NCBI RefSeq assembly: GCF_000159695.1
Contig: NZ_CM000955.1
Span: 1,065,473 to 1,129,472, forward strand
Reading direction: 5' to 3'
Source of the DNA: Finegoldia magna ATCC 53516
GTDB lineage: Bacteria > Bacillota > Clostridia > Tissierellales > Peptoniphilaceae
DNA length: 64,000 nt
The translations under genes were made by a program, and so were the position numbers. This document shows positions 41,493 through 57,551 of this stretch, piece by piece. The notes beneath the pieces were generated by a model. That model had not been told where the DNA came from. It made no database searches and saw only the letters and a program-made list of their open reading frames with translations. Numbering within the stretch: the first letter of the stretch is position 1; the number at the start of each line of letters is the position of its first letter.

Positions 41493-41504
41493 TTATGCCT
41501 CTCG

Positions 41505-41888
41505 TTAGTTGTTTTTATATTCTTCCAATACTTTTTTGTAGCCTTCTTCTTCCAATGCTTCTTCAACATATCCTCTGATTTCTTTTGTTGGATATACGTT
41601 TCTCTTGATGGATTTCATTTTCTTCAAAACATCTTCAACGATAATGTTCACATCAGAAGAGTTCATCTTTGCTCCAGCAGAATCGGATGTTTGGGCTATT
41701 GAATGGAAGATTTTTTCCTTGTCAAAGCTTTCAACATTGCCAAGTTTTTTTAGCACCCATTCTCCTTCTTCTCCGAACATTTCATCAAGCACATTGATTT
41801 TTGCATCTTCAATCATATTTGCAACTTTGTTTGGGTCTATATCGTTATCCTTAAAATAATCAAACAACAATTTTGTTAAATCGTTCAT
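41505..41888 (-). CDS. Stand-alone ATP-cone domain protein
   Basis: 127 residues. The region VESFDKEKIFHSIAQTSDSAG...VNIIVEDVLKKMKS...YPTKEIRGYVEEALEEEGYKKVLEEYKN fits the ATP-cone nucleotide-sensing domain of ribonucleotide reductases and NrdR. No reductase domain or zinc ribbon is attached. It could be a nucleotide-binding regulator. The gene lies between tuf (with a terminator between) and a CWB2 gene 12 bp downstream. GGAGG precedes the ATG at 41886-41888. Confidence 0.7.
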   Translation of the reverse strand: MNDLTKLLFDYFKDNDIDPNKVANMIEDAKINVLDEMFGEEGEWVLKKLGNVESFDKEKIFHSIAQTSDSAGAKMNSSDVNIIVEDVLKKMKSIKRNVYPTKEIRGYVEEALEEEGYKKVLEEYKNN

Positions 41889-41904
41889 AAAATCCTCCTT
41901 TAAA

Positions 41905-41936
41905 AAATGAGAGCATCCATTAAAAACGGATGCTCA
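41905..41936 (-). terminator. Terminator after tuf
   Basis: GAGCATCC / GGATGCTC with a 9-base loop and TTTTTT on the minus strand. Confidence 0.9.
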
Positions 41937-41971
41937 GCTTGTCAAATTTATCTACCTTAAATAAGGTTTAA

Positions 41972-43165
41972 TTATTCTATAATTTTAGAAACAACGCCTG
42001 CTCCTACTGTTCTTCCGCCTTCTCTGATGGCAAATCTTAATCCTTCTTCGATTGCGATTGGAGTGATTAATTCGATTATGAATTTTGCGTTATCTCCTGG
42101 CATTACCATTTCTACGCCTTCTTCTAGTTCGATGTTTCCTGTTACATCTGTTGTTCTGAAGTAGAATTGTGGTCTGTATCCTGAGAAGAATGGTGTGTGT
42201 CTTCCACCTTCGTCTTTTGTTAATACGTATACTTCTGCTTCAAATTTTGTGTGTGGGTGGATTGTTCCAGGTGCTGCTAGTACTTGTCCTCTTTCGATGT
42301 CTTCTCTTTGTACACCTCTTAGTAATGCTCCGATGTTGTCCCCTGCTTCTGCTTCGTCAAGTTGTTTTCTGAACATTTCTACACCTGTTACTACTACTGT
42401 TCTTTTTTCTTCAGTTAGTCCTACGATTTCTACGTTGTCACCAACTTTTACTTTTCCTCTTTCTACTCTACCTGTAGCTACTGTTCCACGTCCTGTGATT
42501 GTGAAGATGTCTTCTACTGGCATTAGGAATGGGTGGTCTACGTCTCTTACTGGTGATGGAATCCATTCGTCTACTTCTTCCATCAATTTCATGATTTTGT
42601 CTCCCCATTCTCCGTCTGGATCTTCTAATGCTTTTAATGCTGATCCTACTACGATTGGTGTGTCGTCTCCTTCGTATTCGTATTCGTTTAATAGATCACG
42701 TACTTCCATTTCAACTAATTCGATTAGTTCTGGATCGTCTACTTGGTCTTCTTTGTTTAAGAATACTGCGATTTTTGGTACGCCTACTTGTCTAGCTAAC
42801 AAGATGTGTTCTCTTGTTTGTGGCATTGGACCGTCTGCTGCACTTACTACTAGGATTGCTCCGTCCATTTGTGCTGCTCCTGTGATCATGTTTTTAACGT
42901 AGTCAGCGTGGCCTGGACAGTCTACGTGTGCGTAGTGTCTTTTTTCTGTTTCATATTCTACGTGAGAAGTGTTGATTGTGATTCCTCTTTCTCTTTCTTC
43001 TGGTGCTTTGTCGATGTTAGCGTAGTCTACGAATTCTCCTGAGCCCATTCTCTTGTTTAATACAAGTGTGATTGCTGCAGTTAAAGTTGTTTTACCGTGG
43101 TCAACGTGACCGATTGTACCAATGTTTACGTGTGGTTTATTTCTTTCAAATTTAGCTTTACTCAT
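41972..43165 (-). CDS. tuf: Translation elongation factor Tu
   Basis: 397 residues, full length. G1 [10 protein letters not shown]3 DCPGHADY, G4 NKEDQ and the conserved VGAGVVSKI end are present. It brings aminoacyl-tRNA to the ribosome as a GTP complex. It stands alone, not in the usual str operon (rpsL-rpsG-fusA-tuf), so another copy or an isolated location is implied. A good RBS (GGAGGGAAGC) precedes ATG at 43163-43165. Codon use is strongly biased, as expected for a highly expressed gene. Confidence 0.98.
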
Positions 43166-43312
43166 TGCTTCCCTCCTGGAAATTTTTAGTTATTTTTATT
43201 ATATCACAAACGTTAACAAATTACATTTTTTGGGGGAAATTGTATTGATTTTTGATTAAATTTAATGAAAAATAAAATCCAAATTGAAAAATCTAAATTT
43301 TCATATTTCATC

Positions 43313-43361
43313 TTGACTAATGACACTGTGTCACATATAATTTAATTATGACAGAGTGTCA
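43313..43361 (+). promoter_or_regulatory. Promoter with two TetR-type operators
   Basis: TTGACT (43313-43318), a 17-bp spacer and TATAAT (43336-43341). The spacer contains the palindrome TGACACTGTGTCA (43321-43333), and a second, TGACAGAGTGTCA, lies at 43349-43361 over the start region. A bound repressor would block polymerase directly. The adjacent TetR protein is the obvious candidate, giving self-repression. Confidence 0.75.
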
Positions 43362-43382
43362 TTTTATTTGAGGAGTGATTAT

Positions 43383-43961
43383 ATGCCGAAGCAAACTTTT
43401 TATAATTTGAGTGAAGATAAGAAAAATTTGATTGATAAGGTTCTGAAAGACGAGTTTTCCTCGAAGCCGTTCAAAGATTGCAATGTAAAAAATATTGTGG
43501 ATAGGTTGTCGATTGCACGCGGAAGTTTCTATCAATATTTTGATGATTTAAAGGATAGCTACTTCTACATTTTGGATAAGGAAACGAAGGATGTTCATTT
43601 GCTTTTTATGTCTGTGCTAAGGCAAAATAACAATGATGTGTTGAAGGCGTTGGATGTGTTTGGCGATGAGGTATGTGATCTGATTTTTGAAGATGGAGAG
43701 TATGATTTGTACAAGTTTAGGTATTTGTATTGGAATAGCGAGTTGGAAGATAGCTGGAAGGCTAAGAAGAAGGAATATTATGAGATTTTTCAAAATGATA
43801 CGGGAGGTAATAAGCTGGAGCTTGTGTATTTTATGAAGGCTACTGTTCACAGTTTGATTGAGAGAAATTTCAAGGAAGGTTGGTCTAGGGATATTTTTCT
43901 ACAAAAGTATCGTCTGCATATTAATTGGTTAAAGGAAGGGATCAAAAATGAAGATTTTTGA
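43383..43961 (+). CDS. TetR-family transcriptional regulator
   Basis: 192 residues from ATG at 43383, chosen because GAGGAGTGAT precedes it; the longer frame starts at a GTG inside the operator. The N-terminal helix-turn-helix is CNVKNIVDRLSIARGSFYQYFDDL. The C-terminal ligand domain is divergent. It overlaps the next membrane gene by 14 bp, so the pair forms one operon controlled by the operators just upstream. Confidence 0.88.
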   Translation: MPKQTFYNLSEDKKNLIDKVLKDEFSSKPFKDCNVKNIVDRLSIARGSFYQYFDDLKDSYFYILDKETKDVHLLFMSVLRQNNNDVLKALDVFGDEVCDLIFEDGEYDLYKFRYLYWNSELEDSWKAKKKEYYEIFQNDTGGNKLELVYFMKATVHSLIERNFKEGWSRDIFLQKYRLHINWLKEGIKNEDF

Positions 43962-45003
43962 GAGTTTATTTGATGTAATTTATTTGTCAGTTTTGGTGGC
44001 TCTTGGTGTTAGATTATTGTTGGAGAAAAACAAGGGCGCAAAATTATTTGGTATAATGGCGATTGTGCTTGGAGTTGGTGATGGTTTTCATTTACTTCCA
44101 AGGGTGATTTCTCATTTGAGTCCAGGAGGTTTTGAGGCTCACGCATCCGCTTTATCATGGGGTCAGTTTGTGACTAGCATTACAATGACAATTTTCTATG
44201 TGCTTTATTATCATTATTATCGTTCGCAAAGTAATGATACTGACAATTCTAAAAAATGGATTATTTATGGTTTGGCGGCTTTGAGGGTTGTTCTTGTGTT
44301 GTTGCCACAAAATAATTGGGGAACTGCCAATGGAAATTATATGTTTGGAATTTACAGAAATATTCCTTTCTTGATTATGGGAATTCTGTTGATTGTGTGG
44401 TCATACAAGAAGAAAGATGTTCCTGCGTTTAAGCACATGTGGATTTTGATTTTGTTGTCATTCTTATTCTACGTTCCTGTTGTTTTATTCAGCGATAAAG
44501 TTCCTGCAATTGGAGCTTTAATGATGCCTAAAACTGTGGCATATTTCTTGATTGTGTGGTTTGGTTTCAAACATTTTGTGAGTGAATTTGGCGTTAATAA
44601 TTTGTTTGCAAATTCTATTACGCTTTTGATTATGGGACTTATAGGTGGTGTGTTCTATCGTGAATTCACGAAATTCTACGGTTTTAGCGATGTAACTCAT
44701 CTTGGCAAAATCCACGTTCACACTTTGGTTCTTGGATTTGTCGTTAGTTTGTTGATGTATTTATTGGCAAAGGATATGAACGATGTAAAATCACTGAAGA
44801 AACCTTATGAAATTTATCTTACAGGTCTTACGTTCACAATTGTAAATATGGTTGTGATTGGAATTTACGAAGTGGTTCGTGAGGAAACGGATGTGATTAT
44901 TCGTGCGGCAATCGATGGAACTTCTGGCATCGGTCACATTATTCTAGGCGTTGGAATTGTGTGGATGTTTGTGAAATTATATAATTTGAAAATAGCAGAG
45001 TAA
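43948..45003 (+). CDS. Ten-helix membrane protein with a DUF2871 C-terminal half
   Basis: 351 residues with about ten membrane helices. The second half (about 215-345) fits DUF2871: GLIGGVFYREFTKFYG and KIHVHTLVLGFVVSLLMYLLA, with a conserved His pair inside the membrane. The first half is a separate membrane region that I do not recognise. The arrangement looks like a fusion. Transmembrane histidines hint at metal, haem or proton handling, but this is only a suggestion. It is controlled together with the TetR regulator it overlaps. Confidence 0.75.
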   Translation: MKIFESLFDVIYLSVLVALGVRLLLEKNKGAKLFGIMAIVLGVGDGFHLLPRVISHLSPGGFEAHASALSWGQFVTSITMTIFYVLYYHYYRSQSNDTDNSKKWIIYGLAALRVVLVLLPQNNWGTANGNYMFGIYRNIPFLIMGILLIVWSYKKKDVPAFKHMWILILLSFLFYVPVVLFSDKVPAIGALMMPKTVAYFLIVWFGFKHFVSEFGVNNLFANSITLLIMGLIGGVFYREFTKFYGFSDVTHLGKIHVHTLVLGFVVSLLMYLLAKDMNDVKSLKKPYEIYLTGLTFTIVNMVVIGIYEVVREETDVIIRAAIDGTSGIGHIILGVGIVWMFVKLYNLKIAE

Positions 45004-45007
45004 TTAT

Positions 45008-45036
45008 GGGAGTAGCTTATGTGAGCTACTCTTTTT
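45008..45036 (+). terminator. Terminator after the TetR/DUF2871 pair
   Basis: AGTAGCT / AGCTACT with a 6-base loop and TTTTT. Confidence 0.85.
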
Positions 45037-45113
45037 GTGTTTTGTGGACTTTGTTTGGGTATATAAGTATTGAAAGTTATTGCAAATATCTGATTTAACA
45101 AAAGGAGGATTTT

Positions 45114-46079
45114 ATGGCGAAGAATTTTGAAAAAGCCTGTGTAATTGGCGGTGGCGTGATTGGTTCATCGTTTACTTTGCTTTTTGCGATGGGCAAGATG
45201 GATGTTAAAAGTTACAACAGAAGTCCGGAAAGTGAAGCAAAGACTAAGAAGATTATAGAAGGATACGTGGACGAATTAATTGAGAAGAAGGTCGTTACGG
45301 AGGATAAGGAAACGATTTTATCAAGAATCAGATATACTACGAACGAACAAGAAGCGATTGAATTTGCAGATATTGTGGAAGAGTGTATTCCAGAACACTA
45401 CGATGTTAAAAAAGAATTCGTGAAAGTTTTTGAAAAATACGCAAAGGACGATTGTGTTTTGTGTTCTGCAACATCGGGACTACTTGTCACTAAAATCGCA
45501 GAAGATGCCAAACGTCCCGAAAGAATTTTCGGAGCGCACCCTTACAACCCACCTCATTTGATTCCACTGATTGAGATTTCACAAGGAGAAAAATCAGACC
45601 CAGAAACCGCGAACGCTCTTCGTGAATTATTCACTAGATTGGGCAAGAAACCTATCATCATCAGAAATGAAGTTCCAGGTTTTATAGCAAACAGGCTTCA
45701 AGCCGTGGTGCTTCGTGAAATGATGGATTTGGTGGACAAGGGAGTCGTTAGTATGGAAGATTGCGAAACTGCGTTGACATTTGGCCCTGCAATTAGATGG
45801 GCAATCATGGGTCCTGGACAAATATTTGAACTTGGAGGAGGAGACCATGGACTTCAGGGTCTTCTCGATCACATCGGCCCTTCCATGGAAACTTGGCTAG
45901 AAGATGCCGCTACATGGACCAAATTCACAGACGAGATTAAGAAGAAAACAGTCGACGGAGTTCACGAAGCAATCAAAAACAGACCGGCGGACATTGGCAA
46001 CACTCACGAAACTCTTGCAAAATATCGTGACGGTATGCTTGTCGAAATACTAAGACTTCACAAAGATTATAAAATTTAA
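45114..46079 (+). CDS. 3-hydroxyacyl-CoA dehydrogenase-type NAD-binding oxidoreductase
   Basis: 321 residues. The Rossmann motif is CVIGGGVIGSS near the N-terminus. The catalytic region is GAHPYNPPHLIPLIEI, followed by VPGFIANRLQAVVLRE, typical of the 3HCDH family. The C-terminal domain is the helical dimerisation part. It resembles carnitine/L-gulonate 3-dehydrogenases more than classic beta-oxidation enzymes. No other beta-oxidation gene is nearby. GGAGG precedes the ATG; a terminator follows. Confidence 0.85.
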   Translation: MAKNFEKACVIGGGVIGSSFTLLFAMGKMDVKSYNRSPESEAKTKKIIEGYVDELIEKKVVTEDKETILSRIRYTTNEQEAIEFADIVEECIPEHYDVKKEFVKVFEKYAKDDCVLCSATSGLLVTKIAEDAKRPERIFGAHPYNPPHLIPLIEISQGEKSDPETANALRELFTRLGKKPIIIRNEVPGFIANRLQAVVLREMMDLVDKGVVSMEDCETALTFGPAIRWAIMGPGQIFELGGGDHGLQGLLDHIGPSMETWLEDAATWTKFTDEIKKKTVDGVHEAIKNRPADIGNTHETLAKYRDGMLVEILRLHKDYKI

Positions 46080-46091
46080 GGATATAATGTG

Positions 46092-46123
46092 AAAATCTCC
46101 CGAGTTTTTCGGGAGATTTTTAG
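46092..46123 (+). terminator. Bidirectional terminator between the dehydrogenase and the island
   Basis: AAATCTCCCGA / TCGGGAGATTT with loop GTTTT. Related but broken sequence occurs next to the direct repeat at the other end of the island. Confidence 0.85.
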
Positions 46124-46127
46124 GTTG

Positions 46128-46156
46128 GTTATTGATTATTTTTTGAGTTAAATTTT
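46128..46156. repeat. Left direct repeat flanking the accessory island
   Basis: TTATTGATTA, a T run and GAGTTAAATTTT recur at 52216-52245 with one extra T. The left copy overlaps the 3' end of the helicase gene (encoding its last residues, NSKNNQ). Similarity extends beyond it towards the terminator. Confidence 0.65.
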
Positions 46157-49100
46157 CTAATTTCGTTTATCGTTTTATTTATAACATCACTGCCCAAATT
46201 CGAATACAACTTTTTGTCGCCAATTATATAAAACTCTTTTTTGGCTCTGGTTGCTGATACGTTCATTATGTTAGGATTTTCTGAGCCCATTGCCCAATTT
46301 GCAGCCCCTTTGCTCTTTTCATCTGCACCTAAAACCAAGAATACTATTGGTGCTTCTTTTCCTTGGAATGTGTGTACAGTTCCCACATTTGTAGGGCTGG
46401 ATTTGCTATCGTATCTCGTGAATTTAAGATCTGCTGCGAGTTTTCTGGATAAATTATCCGCAACATTTTTAAATGGAGATATTACATAGACTTGGTCTTT
46501 CTTGGATTTATCTAAAATATCTTTGTTATGTTCTGATAATTCTCTGATTTTTTGAACTAATAAATCTCCTTGCTCTTTCACATATTTATTATCTGCAGAT
46601 CCACCGACATCATACCACTCTGCTTTTCCATCTGATTTATTGCCTTGAACCATGTTTCCACCGTAGGAAATCTCGTTTGAAATGTTGAACATTGGATATT
46701 TGCAACGTCTATGCACCCATAATGGAATTCCTATCCAATCTTCAGGATTATTCAAATTTTTGTAAAATCCATATTGACTAACGCTGTCAATAAGTGTCTG
46801 TGTTGATGCATCTTCTGATAAATAAGCTTCGCCAACTTCATAATTTCGTCCCAACAAGCTTAGTATATATGAATCTAGTGTTAGGACTGGTTTGATTTGT
46901 GCTGGATCTCCAACTGCCATTACGTGCTTACATCTAAATATTGCTCCTACACTTGCTTGTGGCAAAGCTTAACCAGCTTCGTCAATAAACAAATGTCCAA
47001 GAGAATTTGCTTGAATATTTGAAAACATCCTTCCCATACTTGCAAATGTGGAACTTATAACTGGAACTACCATGTTTATCCAGTTCCAAGCTTGTTGTAT
47101 AACGATGTTTTTGTCCAAGTAATTTTGTTGTTTGCTCCATATTCTAGTTGCAGCTTCAATATTTTTGATATTTTCATACAAGAATTGTTTTCGAACTTTC
47201 AATGCACTTATGAACAATTCTGACTGAATTCTACGATACTCTTCGTCAAACCAAGGATTGCTCATTTGTAAGTCATCATATGACAATGAAAAATCCAAGA
47301 CATTGACATCTGTATTTACAGATACATCCTTCAGATCTCTAATTTTTGCTTCTAATTTTTTTATTTCGTAATCCTCTTTTTGAGTTGCTTGTACAATCTG
47401 TGATTTTTTATCTTCTACAAGCTTATTTCCATACGAAATTTGATATTCAACGACTTTTAACTCTTCTACAAAATCATCTAGCATTGATTTTGTAGATCTT
47501 TCTTTGTCTAATATTTTTAGCAACTCGTCGGAATATTTTCTCATCTGTTCATCATATGATTTTTTTCTACTAAATTGGAAAAATCCCGGTTTCTGTAATT
47601 TCAAAACATCAATGCTATTTTCAATCATTTTCTTATCTTCACTTATATTTGACGATGCCTTGTTCAATTCATCAACTTTTTGAACCAGTTGATTCTTATT
47701 AGAAGATAATTCCTTTAATTTCACATTAATCTCTTTTACAAAACTACTCAATTCATTTTTTCTAAATTCTACATTTTTTATGAAGTCCGATTTTTTATTT
47801 AATAGTTCGTACTCAAATCTATCAACAGAGAAAATTTTGTCCGATAATTTTTGCCTTTTGTCTCTATAAGACAATGCTTCCTTGTACTTCCTTTCAAATT
47901 CATTGTAGACATTATCATTTGAAATGTAATTAGTTTTTAAATCTTCTATCACATGCTTTAACGCTGTGATTATATAATACATATTTTCTGATCTTCCACC
48001 TTCAAGAGAAATCAATCCCCAAAAATTTTCCTCTGAGTTTTTTTCAGATTCTAACTTTTCGATCTTTTTATCATTTTCTTCGACCCATATTGTTGAAACT
48101 TTAGAGTTTGAGATATCTTTAAAATAATCTATTTTTTTTAAATCTTTAACCAATGATTCATCAATTTCAGATATTAGCGGAAGTTCATCTACAATGTTTT
48201 TTAAAGCGCCATTGTTAGAACTTGCAACAATAATTCCATTTTCTGCTATTTGAGATGGTAGCACACCAATTGAAGCCTTGTACGACCCACTTTCCCAATA
48301 AACAGTCTCATCATTACCAGCGATTTTTTTGTTTTTTAATTGTATAATTTCATATGATTGTTTTACCAGTAATTCCGAGAAAACATCTCTTAAAAGTGTA
48401 GTTTTCCCTGTTCCAGGAGGCCCATTCACACTTCTCATATTATTAGAATCGTATCCTATTGACAAATTGATAGCGACTTGCTGCATGAAATATGGTGCAT
48501 ATTGTATATTTCTTGGAAACCTTGACAATGGATAGTTTTTGGGCTGCAAAATATCTACAAAAATATGCCTGTTAAACTTAGGAGATGTGCTTCTACTATC
48601 CAAATTCTTTCTGACTGAACTGTTTCCCATCAAATAATCATTCAAGTTTTTTGATTGAACAGATTTTGCTTTTTGCAAATCATTAACGAAAAACGAGTGT
48701 AGATTAGTTGCATCGGTCTCCAAGTTTTTCAAAGGTTTCATCCTGCAGTTATTAATGTCTATTTTATTAGTTTGTAAGATGTTTAAAATAGCCTTATTAA
48801 ACCATTCTTTGTATGGTTCATCTTCTGGACAGTCAAATATTTCTTGGATTTTTTTGCTAAAATCTTCCTCAAACTCTTTGAACTCTTTTTCTGAAGGAAT
48901 TGTGTGAAAGTTTCTAATGTAAGAACTTTCCGTCAAAAAAGTCATATCAGAGCTTAGTTTCAAATCTTTATCGAAATACAATGCGAATGAAAATTTGTTT
49001 CCCAATGTGATTTCTTGATTAGATACGGGAAGATTGAATTTATCTCTCAAAAAATCGATTACTTCCGTGAATTTAAAAATATCAAAATATACAACTATTC

Positions 49101-49278
49101 CGCCTTTTCGATCTGGTTCAAGATTAAGATATTTGATTCTTTTATTAAATAAATCATAGAAATCATCATTCTTGAGATATTGAAAAGTTAAAAGTTTAGT
49201 GTCTCCTAAATTGATATCTCCCTCCGATAAATGCTCCACCATAATCCATGATTCTAATATTTTTTCTTTTTAGTTCAT
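46129..49278 (-). pseudogene. Large SF1 (UPF1-like) helicase, broken by two in-frame TAA codons
   Basis: About 1050 codons from ATG at 49276-49278, which has AAAGGAGC upstream. Codon 3 is TAA (49270-49272), and a second TAA at 46969-46971 sits inside motif II: IDEAG-stop-ALPQA, where relatives have DEAGQA. The same frame continues after both stops. All SF1 motifs are present: Walker A NGPPGTGKTT (about residue 290), motif III GDPAQIKP, motif V HTFQGKEAPIV and motif VI SATRAKKEF. A coiled-coil insert (about 440-660) lies between motifs I and II. Without readthrough only an N-terminal fragment lacking motif II to VI could be made, and only from a later start (ATG 49242, poor RBS). Last gene of the island operon. 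Confidence 0.85.
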
Positions 49279-49363
49279 GTTATGCTCCTTTGTTAATCGA
49301 TTTTATTTTTATTATTTCTATATTTCCATTGATTATAATCTCAATTATCGTGCCATTGTCATC

Positions 49364-49945
49364 CTATCCTAATCTATATTTTTTGACAAAAGCTTCATTA
49401 GCTTTCAGGATTTCTTTGTATTCAGTAATCATATTATAAAACGTGGCTTTTTTTAATCCAGATTTATCCAAGAATTCCTTTGAGGAAATGTTATTATTTT
49501 CCCAATTCTCATACAATTCTTCCCAATTATTTGGAAAATCAATTTTATTTCTTCCTGAGTTGATCTTTCTATTTCTAGGAAGCTCGATAATGTTTTTGTT
49601 GTTTAAGAGAACAGAATCTAATATTGTGCTTAGAATAGCTTTATTCATAGGCTGAGATACACCGTATTTATAGGTGGATTCTATATTAGAAACAACGAGA
49701 TATTTCCCGTTTTCAATAAAATATTTAAGAGAATTGGCGATGTCTTTTTCGTTTATTCCGAGTGATTTTAAGCTTCCGATAATTAAAATATCATCATTTA
49801 TCATCTCGTTTTTTATCTTTTCTAATTCCTGAAAGCTTCTCATGTGTTCGACACTTACACATATTTTCGAATCTTTTTTGTGAATAATTTCCATAATGTC
49901 TTCAAAAATAGAAATATCTTCTGTTGTTTTGGTGTAAATGTACAT
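49364..49945 (-). CDS. Degenerate serine-recombinase-like protein with a C-terminal HTH
   Basis: About 193 residues from ATG at 49945 (GTG at 49951 is an alternative). The N-terminal 110 residues follow the resolvase fold pattern (MRSFQELEKIKNEMINDDILIIGSLKSLG...LKYFIENGKYLVVSNIEST), but the catalytic Ser and Arg residues are not where the family has them. A short helix-turn-helix (ISSKEFLDKSGLKKATFYNMI) closes the protein. It is unlikely to cut DNA and may bind it as a regulator. It starts about 10 bp after the PLD-ATPase stop, whose last codons contain its RBS. Confidence 0.6.
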   Translation of the reverse strand: MYIYTKTTEDISIFEDIMEIIHKKDSKICVSVEHMRSFQELEKIKNEMINDDILIIGSLKSLGINEKDIANSLKYFIENGKYLVVSNIESTYKYGVSQPMNKAILSTILDSVLLNNKNIIELPRNRKINSGRNKIDFPNNWEELYENWENNNISSKEFLDKSGLKKATFYNMITEYKEILKANEAFVKKYRLG

Positions 49946-49956
49946 TATCACCTCTA

Positions 49957-52056
49957 CTACCTCCTAAAAAACTTGACAAACTTATTGAATCTAAAACCCA
50001 ATGCTTGTTCCAGTTCCAATCTATTCACTGTAATTTGGGACATATCTTTCTTGTCTGAATACTTCGCTTCAAATTCAACAGGAAGAGAATTTGTCCAGCT
50101 TTCGAGTATTTTCCTAGACCCTTTGTCGGTTCCTGATGTTATCATTATAACATTTGTTTTAATTATAAAGCATTTGGGTTCATTTTCCCATAGTTTCCTA
50201 ATTCCTTCTATGGCATCTTTGGAAATGTATTTTGCATGATATGAAAAATCATCATTCCAATTGAGTTCTCTTGCATAATCTGGAAGATCATAGCCAAATT
50301 CTTTGAATATATTTATTAAAGTTTTGGATGAGATTTGCATCATGTCAGGATAGTAATCATCGGCGATATCATTTGATTTGATCATGTAGTCGATAAGCTT
50401 GTCCACTTCTGTAATCATCCTTCTAAGATATTCTCTGTATAAGGAGTTTGTCGCTTTGATTTTCATGTTCTTGCTAATTCCATCGTAGGACAATGGGTCT
50501 ATGTCAGTTCTAAGTCCAGCATTATATCTCAAAAACGGCATTCTCTTTCGTTCTGGTTCTTCTGGGTCACTCACGCTATTACTTGCAAATATAATCAATG
50601 GTTGTTCTTCTCTTTGGATGATTTCGCATTGGTGACTATTTTTGATTTTTTCTTTAAGCCTTGCGTAATATGGTCCGTCTATTTCATCAATAAAAATCGG
50701 AACTCCCTTGTAAATCTCGAGCATGGCATCAATGTCTTTTGTAGGTGCTGTTTTAACAGAGAATGCTTTTAGCTGTTTATTGGTCATTAATTTTAGAATA
50801 AATTCTGTCATAAAACTTTTCCCTGTATTGGAACCTTTGGATGCTAATAATGTATATAATGGTAGGCTTGATGTCGGGATGTTTTTTATGTCAGCTATAC
50901 ATCTTATTTTTGCGTGAAACGGTGAAGAAAACAAAATATTTAAAAGCTTGTAGTGGGAATCTCTAACTTTGTCCACATCTCCAACGAAATCTTTCTTGTA
51001 ATTATCAAAAGCTTCAAATAATAAGTCGATATCATTTTTTACATCTTCTTTTTCGGGATTGAGATCTAGTGATTCTCCATCCAAAAAAGCTTCTTTAGTG
51101 TCGAAGTTGAAGGTTAATTTCGGATAATCTTTTTGTATTTCTTTGACATCTATCTTTTTTCTTTGGAGTCTTTTTGCGTTGACGCTGATTTTTTTGATAA
51201 TATTCGGAAGTATTTCAATGTATCCATTTTTCGAGTTTGTATTTAAATTTCGTACAAGTTCTTTGTTCTTCTCCATAATCTTGTCCGCATCGATAGTGTA
51301 TTTGATTTTTTCGTAAACTTCTCCACTATTTTTTGGTTGTTCTAGGACAATTGTTTTTTGCGTTTTCAGTGCTTGTTTGATTATAGGAATATCTTTTTCT
51401 GGATTATCAGTTTTTTTCGATGCTACCACATCTTCTGGTATGTCATCTGACAGACTCCACGCTGTTTCAAAATCTTGCGCATAGGCAACGTACGCTTCAA
51501 AAGTGTCGTCCACCTCATAAATTTCCAGCTGATCGCCCGACCAAGCTCTTCTTGTCATATTAGCAGAGCCTTTGATTACTCTCGTTCGTCCATCATCTGA
51601 TTTAAGAAGGTAGATTTTTCTGTGATCTATAACATACTTAGGAGATTTTATTAACAAAGACTCTTCTTTCATCATTTGTACCAAATCTTTTTCTGACCTC
51701 ACAGCATCAGCTGCCATTTCTGACAATACCATGTTTTCTGCAAGTAAATGAGCTTCTGATGTAATCTCATGAAGTTCGCTGTCTCGTCTAGTCATGAACC
51801 TTCCGCCAAGGATAATTTCTCCATAATCAAACATCTTCATGATTTTATTTACAAATTTGATGTCATAGGAAAAAGTAATAGCCCTGATTTCATTGAATCC
51901 GAAAAACAGCTCCTCCACATCTTTATAGCTAATATCTTTGAGCTCAACATGATATATCTTGTGCTTCGTACCTGATTCAGTTTTTTTACCATTTCCATCA
52001 AGAATTCTCAACTTTTCAATATTTGTGCCAGTATCAAATATGTTTAATTGATTCAT
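49957..52056 (-). CDS. PLD-nuclease / P-loop ATPase fusion protein
   Basis: 699 residues. The N-terminal domain has a single phospholipase-D HKD-like motif: H145-R-K147, then G163-S-A-N166 (DHRKIYLL...IKGSANMT). Single-motif PLD nucleases normally act as dimers. A helical linker (about 220-390) leads to an ATPase domain with Walker A GSNTGKS (408-414), Walker B IFIDEID (454-460), a sensor IIFASNS (488-494) and a likely arginine finger around 506-516. The ATPase looks closest to the AAA+/SF3 helicase group. First gene of the island; RBS AGGGGGG before ATG at 52054-52056. A DNA-sensing and DNA-cleaving role is inferred. Confidence 0.75.
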   Translation of the reverse strand: MNQLNIFDTGTNIEKLRILDGNGKKTESGTKHKIYHVELKDISYKDVEELFFGFNEIRAITFSYDIKFVNKIMKMFDYGEIILGGRFMTRRDSELHEITSEAHLLAENMVLSEMAADAVRSEKDLVQMMKEESLLIKSPKYVIDHRKIYLLKSDDGRTRVIKGSANMTRRAWSGDQLEIYEVDDTFEAYVAYAQDFETAWSLSDDIPEDVVASKKTDNPEKDIPIIKQALKTQKTIVLEQPKNSGEVYEKIKYTIDADKIMEKNKELVRNLNTNSKNGYIEILPNIIKKISVNAKRLQRKKIDVKEIQKDYPKLTFNFDTKEAFLDGESLDLNPEKEDVKNDIDLLFEAFDNYKKDFVGDVDKVRDSHYKLLNILFSSPFHAKIRCIADIKNIPTSSLPLYTLLASKGSNTGKSFMTEFILKLMTNKQLKAFSVKTAPTKDIDAMLEIYKGVPIFIDEIDGPYYARLKEKIKNSHQCEIIQREEQPLIIFASNSVSDPEEPERKRMPFLRYNAGLRTDIDPLSYDGISKNMKIKATNSLYREYLRRMITEVDKLIDYMIKSNDIADDYYPDMMQISSKTLINIFKEFGYDLPDYARELNWNDDFSYHAKYISKDAIEGIRKLWENEPKCFIIKTNVIMITSGTDKGSRKILESWTNSLPVEFEAKYSDKKDMSQITVNRLELEQALGFRFNKFVKFFRR

Positions 52057-52073
52057 AAATACCCCCCTAAATT

Positions 52074-52153
52074 AAATAGTCTAAAAATCACAAACTATTG
52101 TTAGACTAATTATACCCATATTCTATTATTAATCAATCATTTTTAGACTATTT
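52074..52153 (-). promoter_or_regulatory. Island promoter with three TAGTCTAA-type operator sites
   Basis: On the minus strand TTGATT (52131-52136), a 16-bp spacer and TATAAT (52109-52114) form the promoter. AAATAGTCTAAAAAT (52074-52088) and its exact inverse (52139-52153) flank it, and the core TTAGACTA is repeated at 52101-52108, just downstream of the -10 box. The layout suggests repressor sites upstream of -35, at +1 and in the leader. Confidence 0.7.
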
Positions 52154-52214
52154 CGTTAAAAAAATCCTCCAACATTATTATTGGCAAACCAATAAGAGTT
52201 CGGAAGATCTTTGT

Positions 52215-52246
52215 GTTTATTGATTATTTTTTTGAGTTAAATTTTT
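52215..52246. repeat. Right direct repeat flanking the accessory island
   Basis: Nearly identical to 46128-46156 (one T inserted in the T run). It lies in non-coding DNA between the island promoter and the GNAT gene. On the minus strand it would read as a damaged copy of the helicase gene's last codons. A small hairpin ATTGG-CAAA-CCAAT lies about 20 bp away. Confidence 0.65.
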
Positions 52247-52263
52247 GAATTAACAAGATATTT

Positions 52264-52806
52264 TCATTTCTGAGATAATTTTTCCCACTCTTCACGTGTA
52301 ACACCGTATTTCATACTGTCGTAATATGTGCCGTTCCAATATCGAACTTTCCTGATTCTTGCCTCTTGTATGAATCCGATTTTTTCTGCAGCCTTCATCA
52401 TTCGTGGATTGCCGCTAAAAGTAGTCAGTCCTAGATGTTCGATTTGTGGATTATCATTGAACACTTCGCTTGTCCACAATTTGAGGGCTTTTGTTCCTAT
52501 GGATTTGTTCCAGTAATTTTCGTCGTAAATCACAATCCCTATCTCCATCCATCTAGTTTTCTCATCAACCCAATTTTGAGATACCATACCAACGACAACA
52601 CTATCTACTAATATAGCTCTGCAATTGGGTTGTTGAAGATATTTCCAAATACCAGATTTTTCAAATGACTCTAAGCTTTCATAATGAACATAATCTTCAA
52701 AATACGGTCCGTTGAACTTGTTCCACTCGGGTGATTCTTCGCAAAATCCATCTCTCCATATCTTTTCCTTGTGCTTATCGTCAAATCTCTCTAATTGTAT
52801 TTTCAT
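52264..52806 (-). CDS. GNAT-family N-acetyltransferase (RimJ/RimL-like)
   Basis: 180 residues. The acetyl-CoA site region is YDENYWNKSIGTKALKLW followed by HLGLTTFSGNPRMMKAAEKIGF. Such enzymes acetylate ribosomal proteins, aminoglycosides or small amines; the target is unknown. It lies 21 bp after the comM-like gene on the same strand, so both are probably one transcript. The island boundary is just downstream. Confidence 0.85.
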   Translation of the reverse strand: MKIQLERFDDKHKEKIWRDGFCEESPEWNKFNGPYFEDYVHYESLESFEKSGIWKYLQQPNCRAILVDSVVVGMVSQNWVDEKTRWMEIGIVIYDENYWNKSIGTKALKLWTSEVFNDNPQIEHLGLTTFSGNPRMMKAAEKIGFIQEARIRKVRYWNGTYYDSMKYGVTREEWEKLSQK

Positions 52807-52827
52807 CTTCTCTCCTTTTCATCATGT

Positions 52828-54348
52828 CTACCCCCAGTATTTCTGATCCACTGTTCTATATCTTATGGCTTCCATCAAATGCTTGGCTTCGATGTTTTCT
52901 TTTCCATCCAAATCCGCGATTGTGCGTGATATTTTGAGGATTTTATCGAATGATCGTGCGGAGAATTTGTATTTATCGAATGCCAACTGTATGATGGAGT
53001 TTAACTCATCGTTTAATTTGCAGTATTTTCTAATTTGTCGGGTGTTCATTTGTGCGTTGGTTGTGATGTTTTCTTTTTCGAAGCGTTGTTTTTGGATTTC
53101 TCGTGCAGCTTCGACACGTTTTTTGATTTGTTCTGATGTGTCGCACTTTTCATCTGTTGTGAGTTCGTCTAATTTTACTGGTGAAACTTCAACATGGATG
53201 TCAATTCGATCGAGTATAGGTCGGCTGACTTTGTTCAAATAGTTTGCAATTTGATTTTGTGAACAAGTGCATTCGTGGTTAGGATCGCCGAAGTAACCAC
53301 ACGGACACGGATTCATTCCTGCTACAAATAGGAAGTTTGCAGGATATGACAAGGACGCGTTGACTCTTGTTATGGTTATGTTTTTCGTTTCGAGTGGTTG
53401 GCGCAACACTTCTATTGTCGATTTGGAAAATTCTGGAAGTTCGTCCAAGAACAATGCTCCATTGTGAGCGAGGCTGATTTCCCCTGGTTTTGGAACTCTA
53501 CCGCCACCTATAAGGCTGACTTGACTTGCGGTGTGATGAGGCGAGCGAAACGGTCTTGTGGTTACAATGTTTTTTTCTCCGAGTAATCCTGCTACGGAGT
53601 AAATTTTCGTGGTTTCCATTATTTCATCAAAGCTCATGTCAGGCAAAATCGTGCTGAGTCTCATTGCAGACATTGTTTTGCCGCTTCCTGGTGGCCCAAT
53701 CATCAACAAATTGTGAAATCCTGCAGCAGATATTTCCATCGCTCTTTTGAGAAATTTCTGTCCTTTTATATCCGAAAAATCAACATCGTATTGTATTTCT
53801 TGCTGCATGATGTCAATATCATCCAGAACTTTAGTTTCTTGTTCGCCATTCAAAATCCTGATGATTTCATCCAAACTTTCCACACAAACCTTCTCGATTC
53901 CTTTGACCATACTGCATTCTTGTGCGTTTTGTTTGGGTATGTAAACTCGTTCGTATCCCAAATCTTTCAGTGACAACACCATGCACAACGACCCATTTAC
54001 TGGATTCAATCGTCCGTCCAATGATAGTTCTCCGATGAACGCCCATTTTTCTGAAAAATCTTCCACAACTCCCATTGATTGCAAAATAGCCATCGCAATC
54101 GCAAGGTCTAGTTGAGATCCTTCTTTTCTCAAATTTGCAGGTGCCAAATTAATCGTGATACGTTTTACAGGAAATCTGATTCCAGTGTTTTCAATCGCAG
54201 AGCGCACTCTTTCCTTGGATTCTTTTATAGAAGTGTCAGGAAGACCTACAATGTTAAACGAACGCAGACCGTTCGCAAGGTCGCATTCGCATTCCACGAC
54301 ATACCCGTTCAACCCTTCCAAACAACACGTGTTTACTTTCGAATACAT
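52828..54348 (-). CDS. ComM/YifB-family Mg-chelatase-like AAA ATPase
   Basis: 506 residues. The N-terminal Lon-protease-like domain (FNIVGLPDTSIKESKERVRSAI) is followed by a chelatase AAA domain: Walker A MIGPPGSGKTM, Walker B ALFLDELPEF, and a zinc-type cysteine cluster MNPCPCGYFG...CTCS. The C-terminal helical domain ends RYRTVDQKYWG. ComM helicases promote branch migration during natural transformation in Gram-negatives; the role in this group is likely recombination-related. The start is ATG at 54346-54348 with AAGGAG. Confidence 0.92.
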   Translation of the reverse strand: MYSKVNTCCLEGLNGYVVECECDLANGLRSFNIVGLPDTSIKESKERVRSAIENTGIRFPVKRITINLAPANLRKEGSQLDLAIAMAILQSMGVVEDFSEKWAFIGELSLDGRLNPVNGSLCMVLSLKDLGYERVYIPKQNAQECSMVKGIEKVCVESLDEIIRILNGEQETKVLDDIDIMQQEIQYDVDFSDIKGQKFLKRAMEISAAGFHNLLMIGPPGSGKTMSAMRLSTILPDMSFDEIMETTKIYSVAGLLGEKNIVTTRPFRSPHHTASQVSLIGGGRVPKPGEISLAHNGALFLDELPEFSKSTIEVLRQPLETKNITITRVNASLSYPANFLFVAGMNPCPCGYFGDPNHECTCSQNQIANYLNKVSRPILDRIDIHVEVSPVKLDELTTDEKCDTSEQIKKRVEAAREIQKQRFEKENITTNAQMNTRQIRKYCKLNDELNSIIQLAFDKYKFSARSFDKILKISRTIADLDGKENIEAKHLMEAIRYRTVDQKYWG

Positions 54349-54364
54349 AATTTCTCCTTGTTAC

Positions 54365-55066
54365 TTAATTATTAATGTGATTTCTATCGAAAAATGGACA
54401 ACGCAATCCTATACATTGGTTGTTATGCTTGGACCATTTACACACAATGTCACTAGATTCCATCTCAACTCCCAAGTTTTCATTGGCAAATTGTATTGCA
54501 TCTAATATTGATATGTAGGAATCTCTCTTGCAACAACGAGGACCGCCGACTTCTCCTATAGATTCCAACGCTTTGGAAGTCATTTTGTTCGCCATTCCCC
54601 AAGTATTCTTCGCAAGTGGAGATGATCCTGTGACAATTGACATAAAAATCCCTGTGCTAATTCCAGCACCACAAGCTCCCCAAAAACCACAAGTCCCACC
54701 AGGCACTTGTTTTCCACGAGTTCTCATTTCCTTCAAACTTTTATTCAAATTAATATCTCCGCCAGCATTTTTGAACGCTGTCAAAAGCGCCGCTCCGACC
54801 ATAATGTGATGTTCTGGGCCGTGCATGTGACAAAAAGATTCGTCCATCATTTGATCCATAATTTCGATTGGATTTTTCGATGTAGAATTCTTGCAAATCC
54901 CCCAAATCACATCCATTCCATCTGTGTGACATTCGTTACACACGAAGTGACCATCGACACATCTCGTATTGCTGAGTTCTTTTTTGTGACAGATTGCACA
55001 CTCCATTTCCACCGATTCGCCCAAATATTCTAACGGTTTCCCACACAACAGACATTCATCATTCAT
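54365..55066 (-). CDS. Cysteine-rich DUF5714-type protein
   Basis: 233 residues. The N-terminal 55 residues hold three CxxC pairs (CLLCGK, CAICHK, CNECH), likely one or two zinc ribbons. Later come CHMHGPEHHIMVGAA, GGTCGFWGACGAGISTG and GGPRCCKRDS, conserved in this family, then a final pair of Cys near CKWS and CPFF. The many Cys and His suggest metal or Fe-S binding. Related proteins sit near methyltransferase or radical SAM genes in other anaerobes. The function is not known. It shares direction with comM but is separated by 16 bp. Confidence 0.75.
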   Translation of the reverse strand: MNDECLLCGKPLEYLGESVEMECAICHKKELSNTRCVDGHFVCNECHTDGMDVIWGICKNSTSKNPIEIMDQMMDESFCHMHGPEHHIMVGAALLTAFKNAGGDINLNKSLKEMRTRGKQVPGGTCGFWGACGAGISTGIFMSIVTGSSPLAKNTWGMANKMTSKALESIGEVGGPRCCKRDSYISILDAIQFANENLGVEMESSDIVCKWSKHNNQCIGLRCPFFDRNHINN

Positions 55067-55122
55067 ATTTACAACCCCTTATAATTTATTATCTATATTA
55101 TATCACTATAATATGTTTAAAT

Positions 55123-55152
55123 AAAAAAACGGTGCAGACAAATCTACACCGA
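55123..55152 (-). terminator. Terminator after the GST-like gene
   Basis: CGGTGTAGA / TCTGCACCG with one G-T pair and a run of T on the minus strand. Confidence 0.85.
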
Positions 55153-55162
55153 TACAATATTT

Positions 55163-55774
55163 TTATTCTTGAGATTTTTTCACGATTTCTTGTACAACTT
55201 CGTCCTTTTCGAAAGCTTCCGAAACTCTCTTGATATTTGGATATTCTTTCCAAGATTTTGGAGTCATTTCGCTCCAACGAGTAAGAATATAAACGTAAGG
55301 ATCCAACACTGTTTTCTTGTTTTTGTAAACGTGATCGCCATCACCAATCAAACGGTCCAAATGAGTCATCATTTTGTCGATATTTTCAAATGATTTTTGT
55401 TTGATTTTATCAATCTCTGCTTCGTCAGTTGATGTTGTCAAGCCAGCTGGTACGAACAACGCTTCAAATGCTGGATGAAAATCTCCAGTCATAAAAGCCA
55501 TGATTTCATCGAATTGGAACTTGTCTTCAGGAGATTCGTCAGCTCCCAAATCTTTTTCAGGGTATTTGTTCAAAATGTAGCGAAGAATTGCTGCCAATTC
55601 GCTTCTCACAATACCTTCTCCAATGTCTAGTGCTGGAACTGCTCCCAACGGATTGATTTTTCTGTATTCATCTGTTCCAAGTTGTACCTTTTCTACCTCG
55701 TAATCTGCGCCTGCCCATTCCAAGGCAATCCAACAAGCAACAGCGCATGTGCCTGGTGCGTAATATAATTTCAT
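55163..55774 (-). CDS. Glutathione S-transferase-like protein
   Basis: 203 residues. The N-terminal thioredoxin-like domain MKLYYAPGTCAVACWIALEW...NPLGAVPALDIGEGIVRSELAAILRYI matches beta-class bacterial GSTs, including the conserved cis-Pro in AVPAL and the SE pair that binds glutathione. The C-terminal domain is all-helical. GSTs are typical of Proteobacteria. Most Gram-positive anaerobes lack glutathione, so the thiol used here is uncertain. The gene may have been acquired by transfer. Monocistronic. Confidence 0.85.
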   Translation of the reverse strand: MKLYYAPGTCAVACWIALEWAGADYEVEKVQLGTDEYRKINPLGAVPALDIGEGIVRSELAAILRYILNKYPEKDLGADESPEDKFQFDEIMAFMTGDFHPAFEALFVPAGLTTSTDEAEIDKIKQKSFENIDKMMTHLDRLIGDGDHVYKNKKTVLDPYVYILTRWSEMTPKSWKEYPNIKRVSEAFEKDEVVQEIVKKSQE

Positions 55775-55885
55775 AACATTCCTCCTTTTGTTTTACTGTA
55801 AATTGTATACCCTTTATTCTTTTTTAATAATCAAATTGATTGGGCAAATTTGAAAACTTGTGTGACAAATTTCTCGGATAAATTT

Positions 55886-55913
55886 TTGAAAATTCAAATT
55901 AATGTGCTATAAT
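55886..55913 (+). promoter_or_regulatory. Promoter of the thiSFGH operon
   Basis: TTGAAA (55886-55891), a 16-bp spacer and TATAAT (55908-55913). The transcript would begin about 10 bases before the leader hairpin. Confidence 0.6.
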
Positions 55914-55928
55914 AATCACAGAGTGTTT

Positions 55929-55982
55929 AACACGAAGGGGTACACCACCGCGGGTGTAGGTTTCCTTCGTGTTATTTTTTTT
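55929..55982 (+). promoter_or_regulatory. Structured leader hairpin/terminator before thiS
   Basis: AACACGAAGG (55929-55938) pairs with CCTTCGTGTT (55964-55973). Inside it TACACC (55941-55946) pairs with GGTGTA (55953-55958) around loop ACCGCG. Eight T follow almost at once. It therefore looks like an intrinsic terminator placed between promoter and thiS, which must be relieved for expression. It lacks the conserved TPP riboswitch sequences. A structured RNA class named after thiS has been described in the literature, as far as I recall; I could not check whether this is a member. Confidence 0.65.
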
Positions 55983-55994
55983 AGGGGGTGAAAT

Positions 55995-56192
55995 ATGATT
56001 ACTGTAAATTCTGTCAAATATCCATTCGAAGAAAATTCTTCTTTGAGAAAAGTTCTTGAAGATTTGAACTTCAATGTGGAGTTGACGGTTTGCGAAGTGA
56101 ACAAAAACCTCGTCAAAAAAATCGACTACGATAATTTTATCGTCACTGATAACGACGAAATAGAGGTGTTTTCATTTGTTGGAGGAGGTTAA
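55995..56192 (+). CDS. thiS: Sulfur carrier protein ThiS
   Basis: 65 residues, ubiquitin-like fold, ending FSFVGGG, the Gly-Gly end that is adenylated and loaded with sulfur for thiazole formation. AGGGGGTGAAAT precedes the ATG. The 3' end overlaps thiF by 17 bp, so synthesis is coupled. It is the first gene of thiS-thiF-thiG-thiH. Confidence 0.93.
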   Translation: MITVNSVKYPFEENSSLRKVLEDLNFNVELTVCEVNKNLVKKIDYDNFIVTDNDEIEVFSFVGGG

Positions 56193-56790
56193 AATGCAGG
56201 AGATTTTTAAAAGACAAATCCCCGAACACACAGACATTTTCAGAAAATCCAAAATTCTGATCCTTGGCTGTGGTGGTTTGGGTACCAATTCATGCTTTTT
56301 ACTTGCAAAATCAGGCATTGGCACCATCAAAATCGTGGACTACGACACAGTTGAATATTCCAATTTGAACAGGCAAATCTACAGGCCAACTGATGTCGGC
56401 AAGTACAAGGTCAACGCATTCAAGGAAATTTGCGGTGAGTTCTTGCCATTTGCAAATATATCTGTTGAAAACATCAAAGTTACTGAAAGTAACATCGACG
56501 AATTGACCGACGGCTACGATATCGTAATCGAAGCGTTCGATGACGAATACGCAAAGTCATTGGTGTTGGAGCATTTTATCGGAACTGACAAAAAACTAAT
56601 ATCGGTGTCTGGAATTGGCGGCGTGAAAAAATTAGATATGAAAATTAAAAAAATGAACAATATTGTAGTTTGTGGCGATTTTGAAACGAAGACCGACATC
56701 GGTTTGTACTATCCAAACGTGATGATGGCGGCAAGTACACAAGCTATAATCGCACTTAATTGGTTATTGGAGGAAAATAATGGAAGATAA
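56176..56790 (+). CDS. thiF: ThiS adenylyltransferase ThiF (small type)
   Basis: 204 residues. The E1-like Rossmann motif is [15 protein letters not shown], followed by the [16 protein letters not shown] signature. It activates the ThiS C-terminus with ATP. This is the short thiF form found in clostridia, without the extra C-terminal cysteine domain. The start lies at 56176 (TTG; ATG at 56194 is an alternative with GGAGG at 56181). It overlaps thiG by 11 bp. Confidence 0.9.
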
Positions 56791-57544
56791 ATTGATTTTG
56801 GGTGGCAAATCTTTTGACTCAAGATTTATACTTGGATCTGGAAAATACGATCCCAACCTTATCAAAGCTTGCGTGGAATCTGCAGGCTGCGAGATGATTA
56901 CTGTGGCACTTAGACGTGCAAATACAGACGATACGAAAAATATTTTGAACTTTATTCCAGAAAATGTGACGATAATTCCGAACACTTCTGGAGCGAGAAA
57001 CGCAGACGAAGCTATTAGAATTGCAAGACTTGCGCGAGAAATGGGCTGCGGCAATTTCGTAAAAATAGAAATAATGCGTGACAGCAAGTACTTACTTCCA
57101 GACAACGTCGAAACGTTGAAAGCTACGAAAGTTTTGGCTGACGAAGGATTCGTCGTTATGCCTTATATGTATCCAGATTTGAACTTTGCGAGAGATTTGA
57201 AAGAAGCTGGTGCAAGTTGTATCATGCCATTGGGCTCTCCGATTGGATCCAACAAGGGACTTGCAACCAAAGATTTCATCCAAATCATCATCAACGAAAT
57301 TGATTTGCCAGTTATTGTGGATGCAGGAATCGGCAAACCATCACAAGCGTGTGAAGCCATGGAAATGGGCGCAAGTGCAATCATGGCGAACACTGCCATC
57401 GCTACAAGCGGCGACATCAACAAAATGGCAGAAGCTTTCGCACTAGCAATCAAAGCGGGAAGACTAGCTCACATCGCAAAACCAGGCAGAGTTTTGGAAA
57501 CGGGTGCTGACCCTTCATCTCCACTCAGAGATTTCTTTAAGTAG
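56780..57544 (+). CDS. thiG: Thiazole synthase ThiG
   Basis: 254 residues, TIM barrel. The Schiff-base lysine region FVKIEIM and the phosphate-binding loops [28 protein letters not shown] and [19 protein letters not shown] are present. It forms the thiazole phosphate from deoxyxylulose phosphate, dehydroglycine and ThiS-thiocarboxylate. The next gene, thiH, starts 7 bp after the stop and supplies dehydroglycine. Confidence 0.95.
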
Positions 57545-57551
57545 GCGACAA

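What the first reader, a model, noticed from the sequence alone, without database searches (positions are those of the whole stretch)
46129..52153. Three-gene island: PLD-nuclease/ATPase fusion, recombinase-like HTH protein and large SF1 helicase
A single promoter drives a protein joining a single-HKD PLD domain to an AAA+/SF3-type ATPase, a degenerate resolvase-like protein with an HTH, and a UPF1-like SF1 helicase of about 1050 codons. Nuclease plus helicase plus ATPase in one accessory operon is the hallmark of anti-phage or anti-plasmid systems. Mokosh and DISARM also combine a PLD protein with a helicase, but neither, as I know them, has a PLD fused to this kind of ATPase or a recombinase-like partner. 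The combination could be an undescribed defence system.
Basis: partly seen in the sequence, partly recalled or inferred. Interest (0 to 1): 0.82.

Follow-up and report, generated by a model that had tools for sequence, protein, structure and literature searches.

The report
Nuclease-motor operon with dead resolvase

Summary
The three genes exist but do not form a conserved three-gene system. The conserved unit is g1 (PLD nuclease fused to an MCM/SF3-like AAA+ motor) plus g2 (degenerate serine resolvase): g2 directly follows g1 in 15 of 15 loci of one g1 clade. The SF1 helicase has two in-frame stops, is absent from the other g1 loci fetched, and occurs without g1 in G021; in Finegoldia it may be a frequent neighbour.

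New: the g1 promoter carries 28-bp palindromes (half-site GTCTAWAAAT) over the -35 and just after the -10. They occur in 14 of 15 g2-linked loci (two in 11, spaced 40-43 or 50-51 bp) and in 0 of 8 g2-less loci with visible flanks; 29 of 30 palindromes in 464,576 bases lie at g1. Arg68 and Arg71 are missing from 36 of 36 g2 proteins and present in 10 of 10 ordinary relatives.

Best reading: g2 is a dead resolvase acting as autorepressor of a nuclease-motor that attacks foreign DNA. Binding, repression and defence are inferred; the defence-neighbour control was not decisive. PADLOC profiles do not support Mokosh or DISARM. Ten searches found no published description.

The parts
49957..52056 (-). 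g1: PLD nuclease fused to AAA+ motor, 699 aa
   Evidence: ORF; Pfam PLDc_2 1.1e-4; AF2 model and fold matches; nine active-site or ATPase positions identical in 37 of 37 aligned proteins
51427..51960 (-). PLD nuclease domain of g1 (residues about 33-210; H145, K147, N166, E178)
49981..51123 (-). MCM/SF3-like motor half of g1 (residues about 312-692)
49364..49951 (-). g2: degenerate serine resolvase with C-terminal HTH, 195 aa
   Evidence: AF2 pLDDT 84.5; Foldseek 2r0q 7.8e-6; catalytic residues lost in the family
52121..52148 (.). distal 28-bp palindrome, overlaps the -35 hexamer
   Evidence: 3 mismatches to the consensus
52079..52106 (.). proximal 28-bp palindrome, 2 bp after the -10 hexamer
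   Evidence: 1 mismatch to the consensus
52109..52136 (-). promoter hexamers TTGATT-16-TATAAT of g1-g2
   Evidence: 10 of 12 matches; position kept relative to the palindromes in the alignment of 14 upstream regions
46129..49278 (-). SF1/UPF1-like helicase, broken by two in-frame stops; neighbour, not part of the conserved unit
   Evidence: ORFs of 757 and 278 aa; AAA_12 2e-12, MkoC 3.4e-25 and 4.4e-26; intact 1049-aa relatives
46108..46156 (.). left copy of a direct repeat at the island edge
   Evidence: 86% identity over 50 columns with the right copy
52199..52245 (.). right copy of the direct repeat

Best explanation
g1-g2 is a self-contained, horizontally moving two-gene operon that restricts foreign DNA. 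g1 is the effector: a BfiI/NgoFVII-type PLD endonuclease carried on an MCM/SF3-like ring motor that acts on invading or replicating DNA. g2 is a small serine resolvase that lost the residues for strand exchange but kept the fold and HTH; it binds the 28-bp res-like palindromes over the -35 and the start region of its own operon and represses it. Where two palindromes are present their spacing of about 4 or 5 helical turns lets two dimers bind cooperatively. g1 stays low until g2 is displaced, titrated or inactivated during invasion. Shown here: gene pairing, loss of catalytic residues, predicted folds, the palindromes and their restriction to this promoter. Inferred: that g2 is the protein that binds them, that binding represses, that g1 cuts DNA, and that the outcome is defence.
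For: Pairing: g2 directly downstream in 15 of 15 clade loci (window, L004-L016, L025); one origin of the pairing on the g1 tree, support 100/100. g2: R68 and R71 in 0 of 36, D67 in 1, S10 in 6, against 10 of 10 relatives with D67, R68 and R71; resolvase fold. Operator: at least one palindrome in 14 of 15 g2-linked loci, 29 of 30 palindromes in 464,576 bases at g1; best palindrome reached in 0 of 2000 shuffles in 13 of 14 upstream regions and 1 of 2000 in L025; in G001 and G330 the matches with 2 or fewer mismatches lie at g1, and G002 without g1 has none. Spacing 40-43 bp in nine loci, 50-51 bp in L013-L015. g1: nuclease and ATPase residues identical in 37 of 37. Defence: patchy (5 of 341 class genomes, one of them weak); 10 of 19 loci tested have a restriction, BREX, CRISPR or Abi-like neighbour, from 30 neighbours picked by eye, best case a BREX cluster beside a distant single-gene g1 (L055).
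Against: No binding, nuclease or phage data. The palindrome consensus was read off these same promoters, and the loci are related, so the counts are not independent tests. L016 has g2 but no palindrome; L012, L015 and L025 have only one good one. L017, a truncated g1 with no g2 found, does have palindromes. Ordinary relatives of g2 lack this half-site upstream. Defence company is not shown to be enriched (199 families against 87 in a control), and the window, L004, L006, L007, L008 and L015 sit among what look like housekeeping or metal-resistance genes (read by eye). Distant g1-like proteins (22-25% identity) are on 10 plasmid records.
Confidence: 0.5

Rival explanations
1. Toxin-antitoxin logic: g1 is a self-harming nuclease-motor; g2 is both its repressor and its direct inhibitor, so loss of g2 arrests or kills the cell (abortive infection or element stabilisation).
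For: Two-gene operon with palindromes over the promoter; a DNA-binding second gene always beside g1 in this clade; horizontal spread.
Against: The more distant g1 genes have no g2 (L002, L018-L024), so g1 can exist without it; g1 is far larger than usual toxins; no complex tested.
Confidence: 0.2
2. Remnant replication and resolution module of a mobile element: g1's motor half is a SaPI/SCC-type replication initiator and g2 its resolvase.
For: Fold match to SCCmec Cch and SaPIBov1 Rep; resolvase fold of g2; distant relatives on 10 plasmid records; window island is an insertion with direct repeats.
Against: g2 lacks catalytic residues in 36 of 36; invariant PLD residues in g1; no match in 50,697 phage records; one g1 locus in viral contigs and no g2 locus there; palindromes lie over the g1 promoter rather than behind the motor gene as in SaPIs (PMC7581432 passage).
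Confidence: 0.15
3. Housekeeping-type role in DNA repair or DNA uptake, near the comM-like gene.
For: A comM-like gene (read by eye) lies within a few kb of g1 in the window, L004, L006 and L007.
Against: Rare and patchy, horizontally spread, and not seen near comM in the other loci read.
Confidence: 0.07
4. One reading: PLD-ATPase, recombinase-like protein and SF1 helicase act together.
For: All three adjacent in the window; in three other Finegoldia cases g1 or g2 and an intact helicase are listed with the same longest-contig length (26572, 41709, 47858), so they may share contigs.
Against: No helicase in L001-L028, including F. magna DSM 20470 (L004); helicase broken here while g1 and g2 are intact; helicase at 86% identity in G021, which has no g1.
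Confidence: 0.05

Closest known systems
SauUSI and NgoAVII/BfiI-type PLD restriction enzymes
   Same: single-HxK PLD endonuclease domain joined to or working with a motor or DNA-reading part (folds)
   Different: the motor here is MCM/SF3-like; Pfam shows no SF2 helicase domain in g1; the operon carries a resolvase-like regulator
SCCmec Cch and SaPIBov1 Rep helicases
   Same: fold of residues 312-692, including the AAA+ core and C-terminal part
   Different: fused to a PLD nuclease; partner is a small, catalytically degenerate resolvase; no primase or integrase recognised by eye beside it
Sin, Tn3 and gamma-delta small serine resolvases
   Same: predicted fold, C-terminal HTH, 28-bp palindromic site like resolvase boxI (PMC12217951 passage)
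   Different: catalytic Asp67, Arg68 and Arg71 lost; sites sit on the promoter of its own operon; no crossover role expected
Repressors of defence operons: RptR (PMC12255303, abstract), BrxR-type WYL regulators (search listing only)
   Same: a small dedicated DNA-binding protein controlling a defence operon through repeats in its promoter
   Different: none that I found is derived from a serine recombinase
Mokosh, DISARM, Hachiman
   Same: nuclease plus helicase logic; the broken neighbour matches Mokosh MkoC
   Different: g1 matches no Mokosh or DISARM model at E 1 or better and the helicase is not conserved with it; Hachiman known here only from the search listing

Membership tests
Mokosh type II (MkoC) | SF1 helicase and PLD domain in one protein (recalled; PLD in Mokosh I and II also in PMC10952713, passage) | tested here: not met
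   The two helicase pieces match MkoC profile positions 253-679 and 684-952 of 1136 and nothing beyond; no Pfam PLD domain in either
Mokosh type I | MkoA helicase beside an MkoB PLD protein (recalled) | tested here: not met
   g1 matches no MkoB model at E 1 or better; MkoA is matched only by the C-terminal helicase piece (7.6e-13)
DISARM | Drm proteins, among them a PLD protein and a helicase (recalled) | tested here: not met
   No Drm model matched by any of the four ORFs at E 1 or better
Small serine resolvases | resolvase fold with C-terminal HTH | tested here: met
   AF2 model; the 18 PDB matches at E 0.001 or better are all serine recombinases, though whole-chain TM scores are only 0.34-0.62 because domain orientations differ
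Small serine resolvases | catalytic Ser10, Asp67, Arg68, Arg71 (numbering recalled) | tested here: not met
   S10 in 6, D67 in 1, R68 in 0, R71 in 0 of 36 family members; the 36 were chosen from 120 listed of 194 hits
Type IV PLD restriction enzymes (SauUSI type) | PLD nuclease domain | tested here: met
   fold matches and HxK...N...E set in 37 of 37
Type IV PLD restriction enzymes (SauUSI type) | SF2 helicase motor | tested here: not met
   No SF2 Pfam domain in g1 at E 1 or better; motor half matches Cch instead
SaPI/SCC replication module | self-loading MCM-like motor | tested here: met
   fold match only
SaPI/SCC replication module | primase or ssDNA-binding partner, origin, integrase nearby | tested here: inconclusive
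   none recognised by eye in the ORFs read; no family search for these was made
Anti-phage defence system | protects cells from phage or plasmid | not testable with these tools
   needs plaque and transformation assays
Toxin-antitoxin pair | g1 toxic alone and neutralised by g2 | not testable with these tools
   needs expression tests

The most novel reading that the evidence does not exclude
A serine resolvase has been exapted, by loss of strand-exchange chemistry, into the dedicated switch of an immune operon. Its paired res-like operator, kept in helical register, forms a repressed protein-DNA complex that invading DNA undoes, for example by titrating g2 onto foreign resolvase sites or by the changed topology of replicating phage DNA. 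g2 would then sense foreign DNA as well as repress, guarding a nuclease whose motor was itself taken from a mobile element's replication helicase.
Probability: 0.3. Interest if true: 0.8.

Novelty: new variant of a known kind. Interest (0 to 1): 0.62.

Why it matters
How bacteria hold dangerous defence nucleases in check, and what releases them, is poorly known. Here the switch looks like a recombinase turned regulator with a short, well-defined promoter that a gel shift can test quickly, and the effector is a PLD-motor fusion that PADLOC-DB 2.0.0 does not describe. The unit has two genes and is found in several families of Bacillota and in Campylobacter, so it is easy to move into laboratory strains for phage tests.

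Tried and rejected
Three-gene system: set aside because the helicase is missing from the other g1 loci fetched and present without g1 in G021. Against this, equal longest-contig lengths (26572, 41709, 47858) suggest that g1/g2 and an intact helicase share contigs in three other Finegoldia cases; I could not fetch those contigs.

Defence-island enrichment: all 118 ORFs of 120 aa or more within 7 kb of g1-g2 in L004-L016 and L025 matched 199 PADLOC families; 118 of 124 ORFs from ten arbitrary 16-kb regions of three genomes matched 87. Not decisive: one protein can match dozens of families, only 25 families are shown, and the control by chance holds restriction-type genes. Single scans were of 30 neighbours chosen by eye from 19 loci; 19 of 30 matched at E 1e-10 or better, three of these only weakly (L004, L013, L018). 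Ten loci (L005, L009, L010, L012, L014, L019, L022, L023, L025, L055) have a strong match, of 19 tested and 28 distinct g1 loci held.

Palindromes in front of 10 ordinary resolvase relatives: no matching 28-bp site. g2 in viral contigs: 19 pattern matches, none confirmed. g1 in phage records: none. Rfam on 40000-60000: nothing. g1 by sequence against the PDB: nothing relevant. The Arg45 position could not be scored because g2 has a gap there in the alignment. Pfam PF27394, attached to the 120 listed g1 homologues, is not in the local library, so its name stays unknown. Rows left out of the tree: L003 and L032 (weak), L017 and L024 (truncated or broken), L026 and L027 (cut by the contig end), L056 and L057 (fetched but not included), and the duplicates L001, L028, L029. 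L058 was fetched and not used.

Literature: ten searches showed no paper describing a PLD-ATPase with a resolvase-like partner. I opened seven papers: PMC12255303 (abstract and outline), and passages only of PMC7581432, PMC12839542, PMC10952713, PMC11291487, PMC5762925 and PMC12217951. The library lacks most subscription papers.

Full report
1. What is there. On the - strand the window carries g1 (49957-52056, 699 aa), g2 (49364-49951, 195 aa) and a helicase coding stretch (about 46129-49278). The host is probably Finegoldia, from names on near-identical homologues; the window's own assembly is not held, and the nearest genome, G001, shares 29% of sampled words. The helicase is broken: a stop a few codons after the start that most relatives use, and a stop in motif II, leaving 757 and 278 aa. 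Intact 1049-aa relatives 100% identical over the 757-aa piece exist (P0242, P0243), and the 757-aa form is listed on 8 contigs, so a single assembly error is unlikely for the second stop. g1 and g2 are intact.

2. The insertion. In G002, of the same genus, the flanking GNAT-like and hydroxyacyl-CoA-dehydrogenase-like genes (named by eye) lie 39 bp apart, so the 6.1 kb is an insertion; its edges carry a direct repeat, 86% identical over 50 columns. F. magna DSM 20470 (L004) has g1-g2 at the same site, but homology stops at window 49339 and 52221; other genes surround the pair and the helicase is absent.

3. The conserved unit. A g1 profile found 24 loci in one-per-species genomes and one in viral contigs, L028, with the same gene layout as L016. 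g2 directly follows g1 in 15 of 15 loci of the window's g1 clade (window, L004-L016, L025); no helicase homologue (E<0.01) is in L001-L028. The exception near this clade is L017, a truncated g1 among transposase-like ORFs with no g2 found; it was not placed on the tree. Distant g1 proteins (26-28% identity) in L002 and L018-L024 have no g2. On the tree of 22 g1 proteins the 15 g2-linked rows form one side of a 100/100 branch; Campylobacter concisus lies inside a set of Bacillota, and Saccharofermentans (a MAG) inside Negativicutes, which suggests horizontal transfer. Among 341 class genomes g1 is in 5 (one weak); g2 matches at E below 1e-90 in two, both of which carry near g1; the next matches start at 7e-24, and the 10 that I read are ordinary resolvases.

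5. g2. The AF2 model (pLDDT 84.5) matches the Sin-DNA complex, Tn3 and gamma-delta resolvases; the 18 PDB matches at E 0.001 or better are all serine recombinases. In 36 family members Arg68 and Arg71 never occur, Asp67 occurs once, Ser10 six times, and Arg8 is always Lys; in 10 ordinary relatives Asp67, Arg68 and Arg71 occur in 10 of 10, and Arg8 and Ser10 in 9 of 9 that could be scored. Strand exchange is therefore very unlikely.

6. The operator. Upstream of g1 lie 28-bp palindromes (GTCTAWAAAT, 8-bp centre, mirror). With 3 or fewer mismatches, 11 of 15 clade loci have two, L012, L015 and L025 have one, and L016, where the g1 frame runs on upstream (1050 aa), has none. None is found in the 8 g2-less loci with visible flanks (L002, L018-L024) or in L026 and L027, which are cut; L017 has two. 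In 464,576 bases (window and L001-L028) there are 30, of which 29 are at g1 (27 of 28 without the duplicate L001). The consensus came from these promoters, so this shows specificity of place, not an independent discovery. Spacing is 40-43 bp in nine loci and 50-51 bp in L013-L015, about one helical turn more (the second site of L015 has 4 mismatches). The distal palindrome overlaps the -35 hexamer; the proximal one follows the -10. In whole genomes, matches with 2 or fewer mismatches are one in G001 and two in G330, all at g1, and none in G002; at 3 mismatches the backward control pattern matches as often or more in two of three genomes. A resolvase boxI of 28 bp is described in PMC12217951 (passage). 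I infer autorepression by g2.

7. Function. Defence is the best guess: intact nuclease plus motor, patchy and horizontal occurrence, and company. A distant single-gene g1 (L055, the same place as L002) lies beside a GmrSD-like gene, BrxL, PglZ and PglX. L012 has a type III-D CRISPR protein, L014 and L023 type IIG enzymes, L009 a type IV enzyme, L022 a related helicase, L005, L010 and L019 methyltransferases, and L025 an AbiLi-like protein. Against: neighbours were picked by eye, several loci look like housekeeping surroundings, and the family-count control was not decisive (199 against 87).

8. Comparison. It works like PLD-motor restriction enzymes such as SauUSI, with a different motor. PADLOC profiles do not support Mokosh or DISARM membership. 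Dedicated repressors of defence operons are known (RptR, abstract; BrxR, listing); none that I found is resolvase-derived.

9. Verdict. Observation partly confirmed, interpretation partly supported. The unit is g1-g2 with a res-like operator.

Noticed in passing
window 46129-49278: The helicase has two in-frame stops yet is otherwise 100% identical over 757 aa to intact relatives; two nonsense codons without a missense change is odd for neutral decay.
   Followed up: partly
window 46108-46156 and 52199-52245: Direct repeats, 86% identical over 50 columns, flank the whole island; the left copy overlaps the 3' end of the helicase.
   Followed up: partly
L004 11730-11950: In F. magna DSM 20470 a second copy of the 3' end of the dehydrogenase-like gene lies directly behind g2, followed by an arsenic-resistance-like cluster (named by eye) before the full gene.
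   Followed up: no
window 52828-54348, L004, L006, L007: A comM-like gene (by eye) lies within a few kb of g1 in Finegoldia, Anaerococcus and another Peptoniphilaceae genome: shared inheritance or an insertion hot spot.
   Followed up: no
L017 8830-8898: Two palindromes that are exact reverse complements of each other lie beside transposase-like ORFs and a truncated g1.
   Followed up: no
L016 7906-11058 and L028: g1 is the end of a 1050-aa frame and has no palindrome; the surroundings look prophage-like (by eye) and the region is also held as a viral contig.
   Followed up: partly
window 46129-46965: The helicase C-terminal piece matches PHROG 194, labelled head scaffolding protein, at 1.4e-26; the label looks wrong for a helicase domain.
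   Followed up: no
L054 5337-10695: In G021 the intact helicase lies behind a large serine-recombinase-like ORF (by eye), with no g1 in that genome.
   Followed up: no
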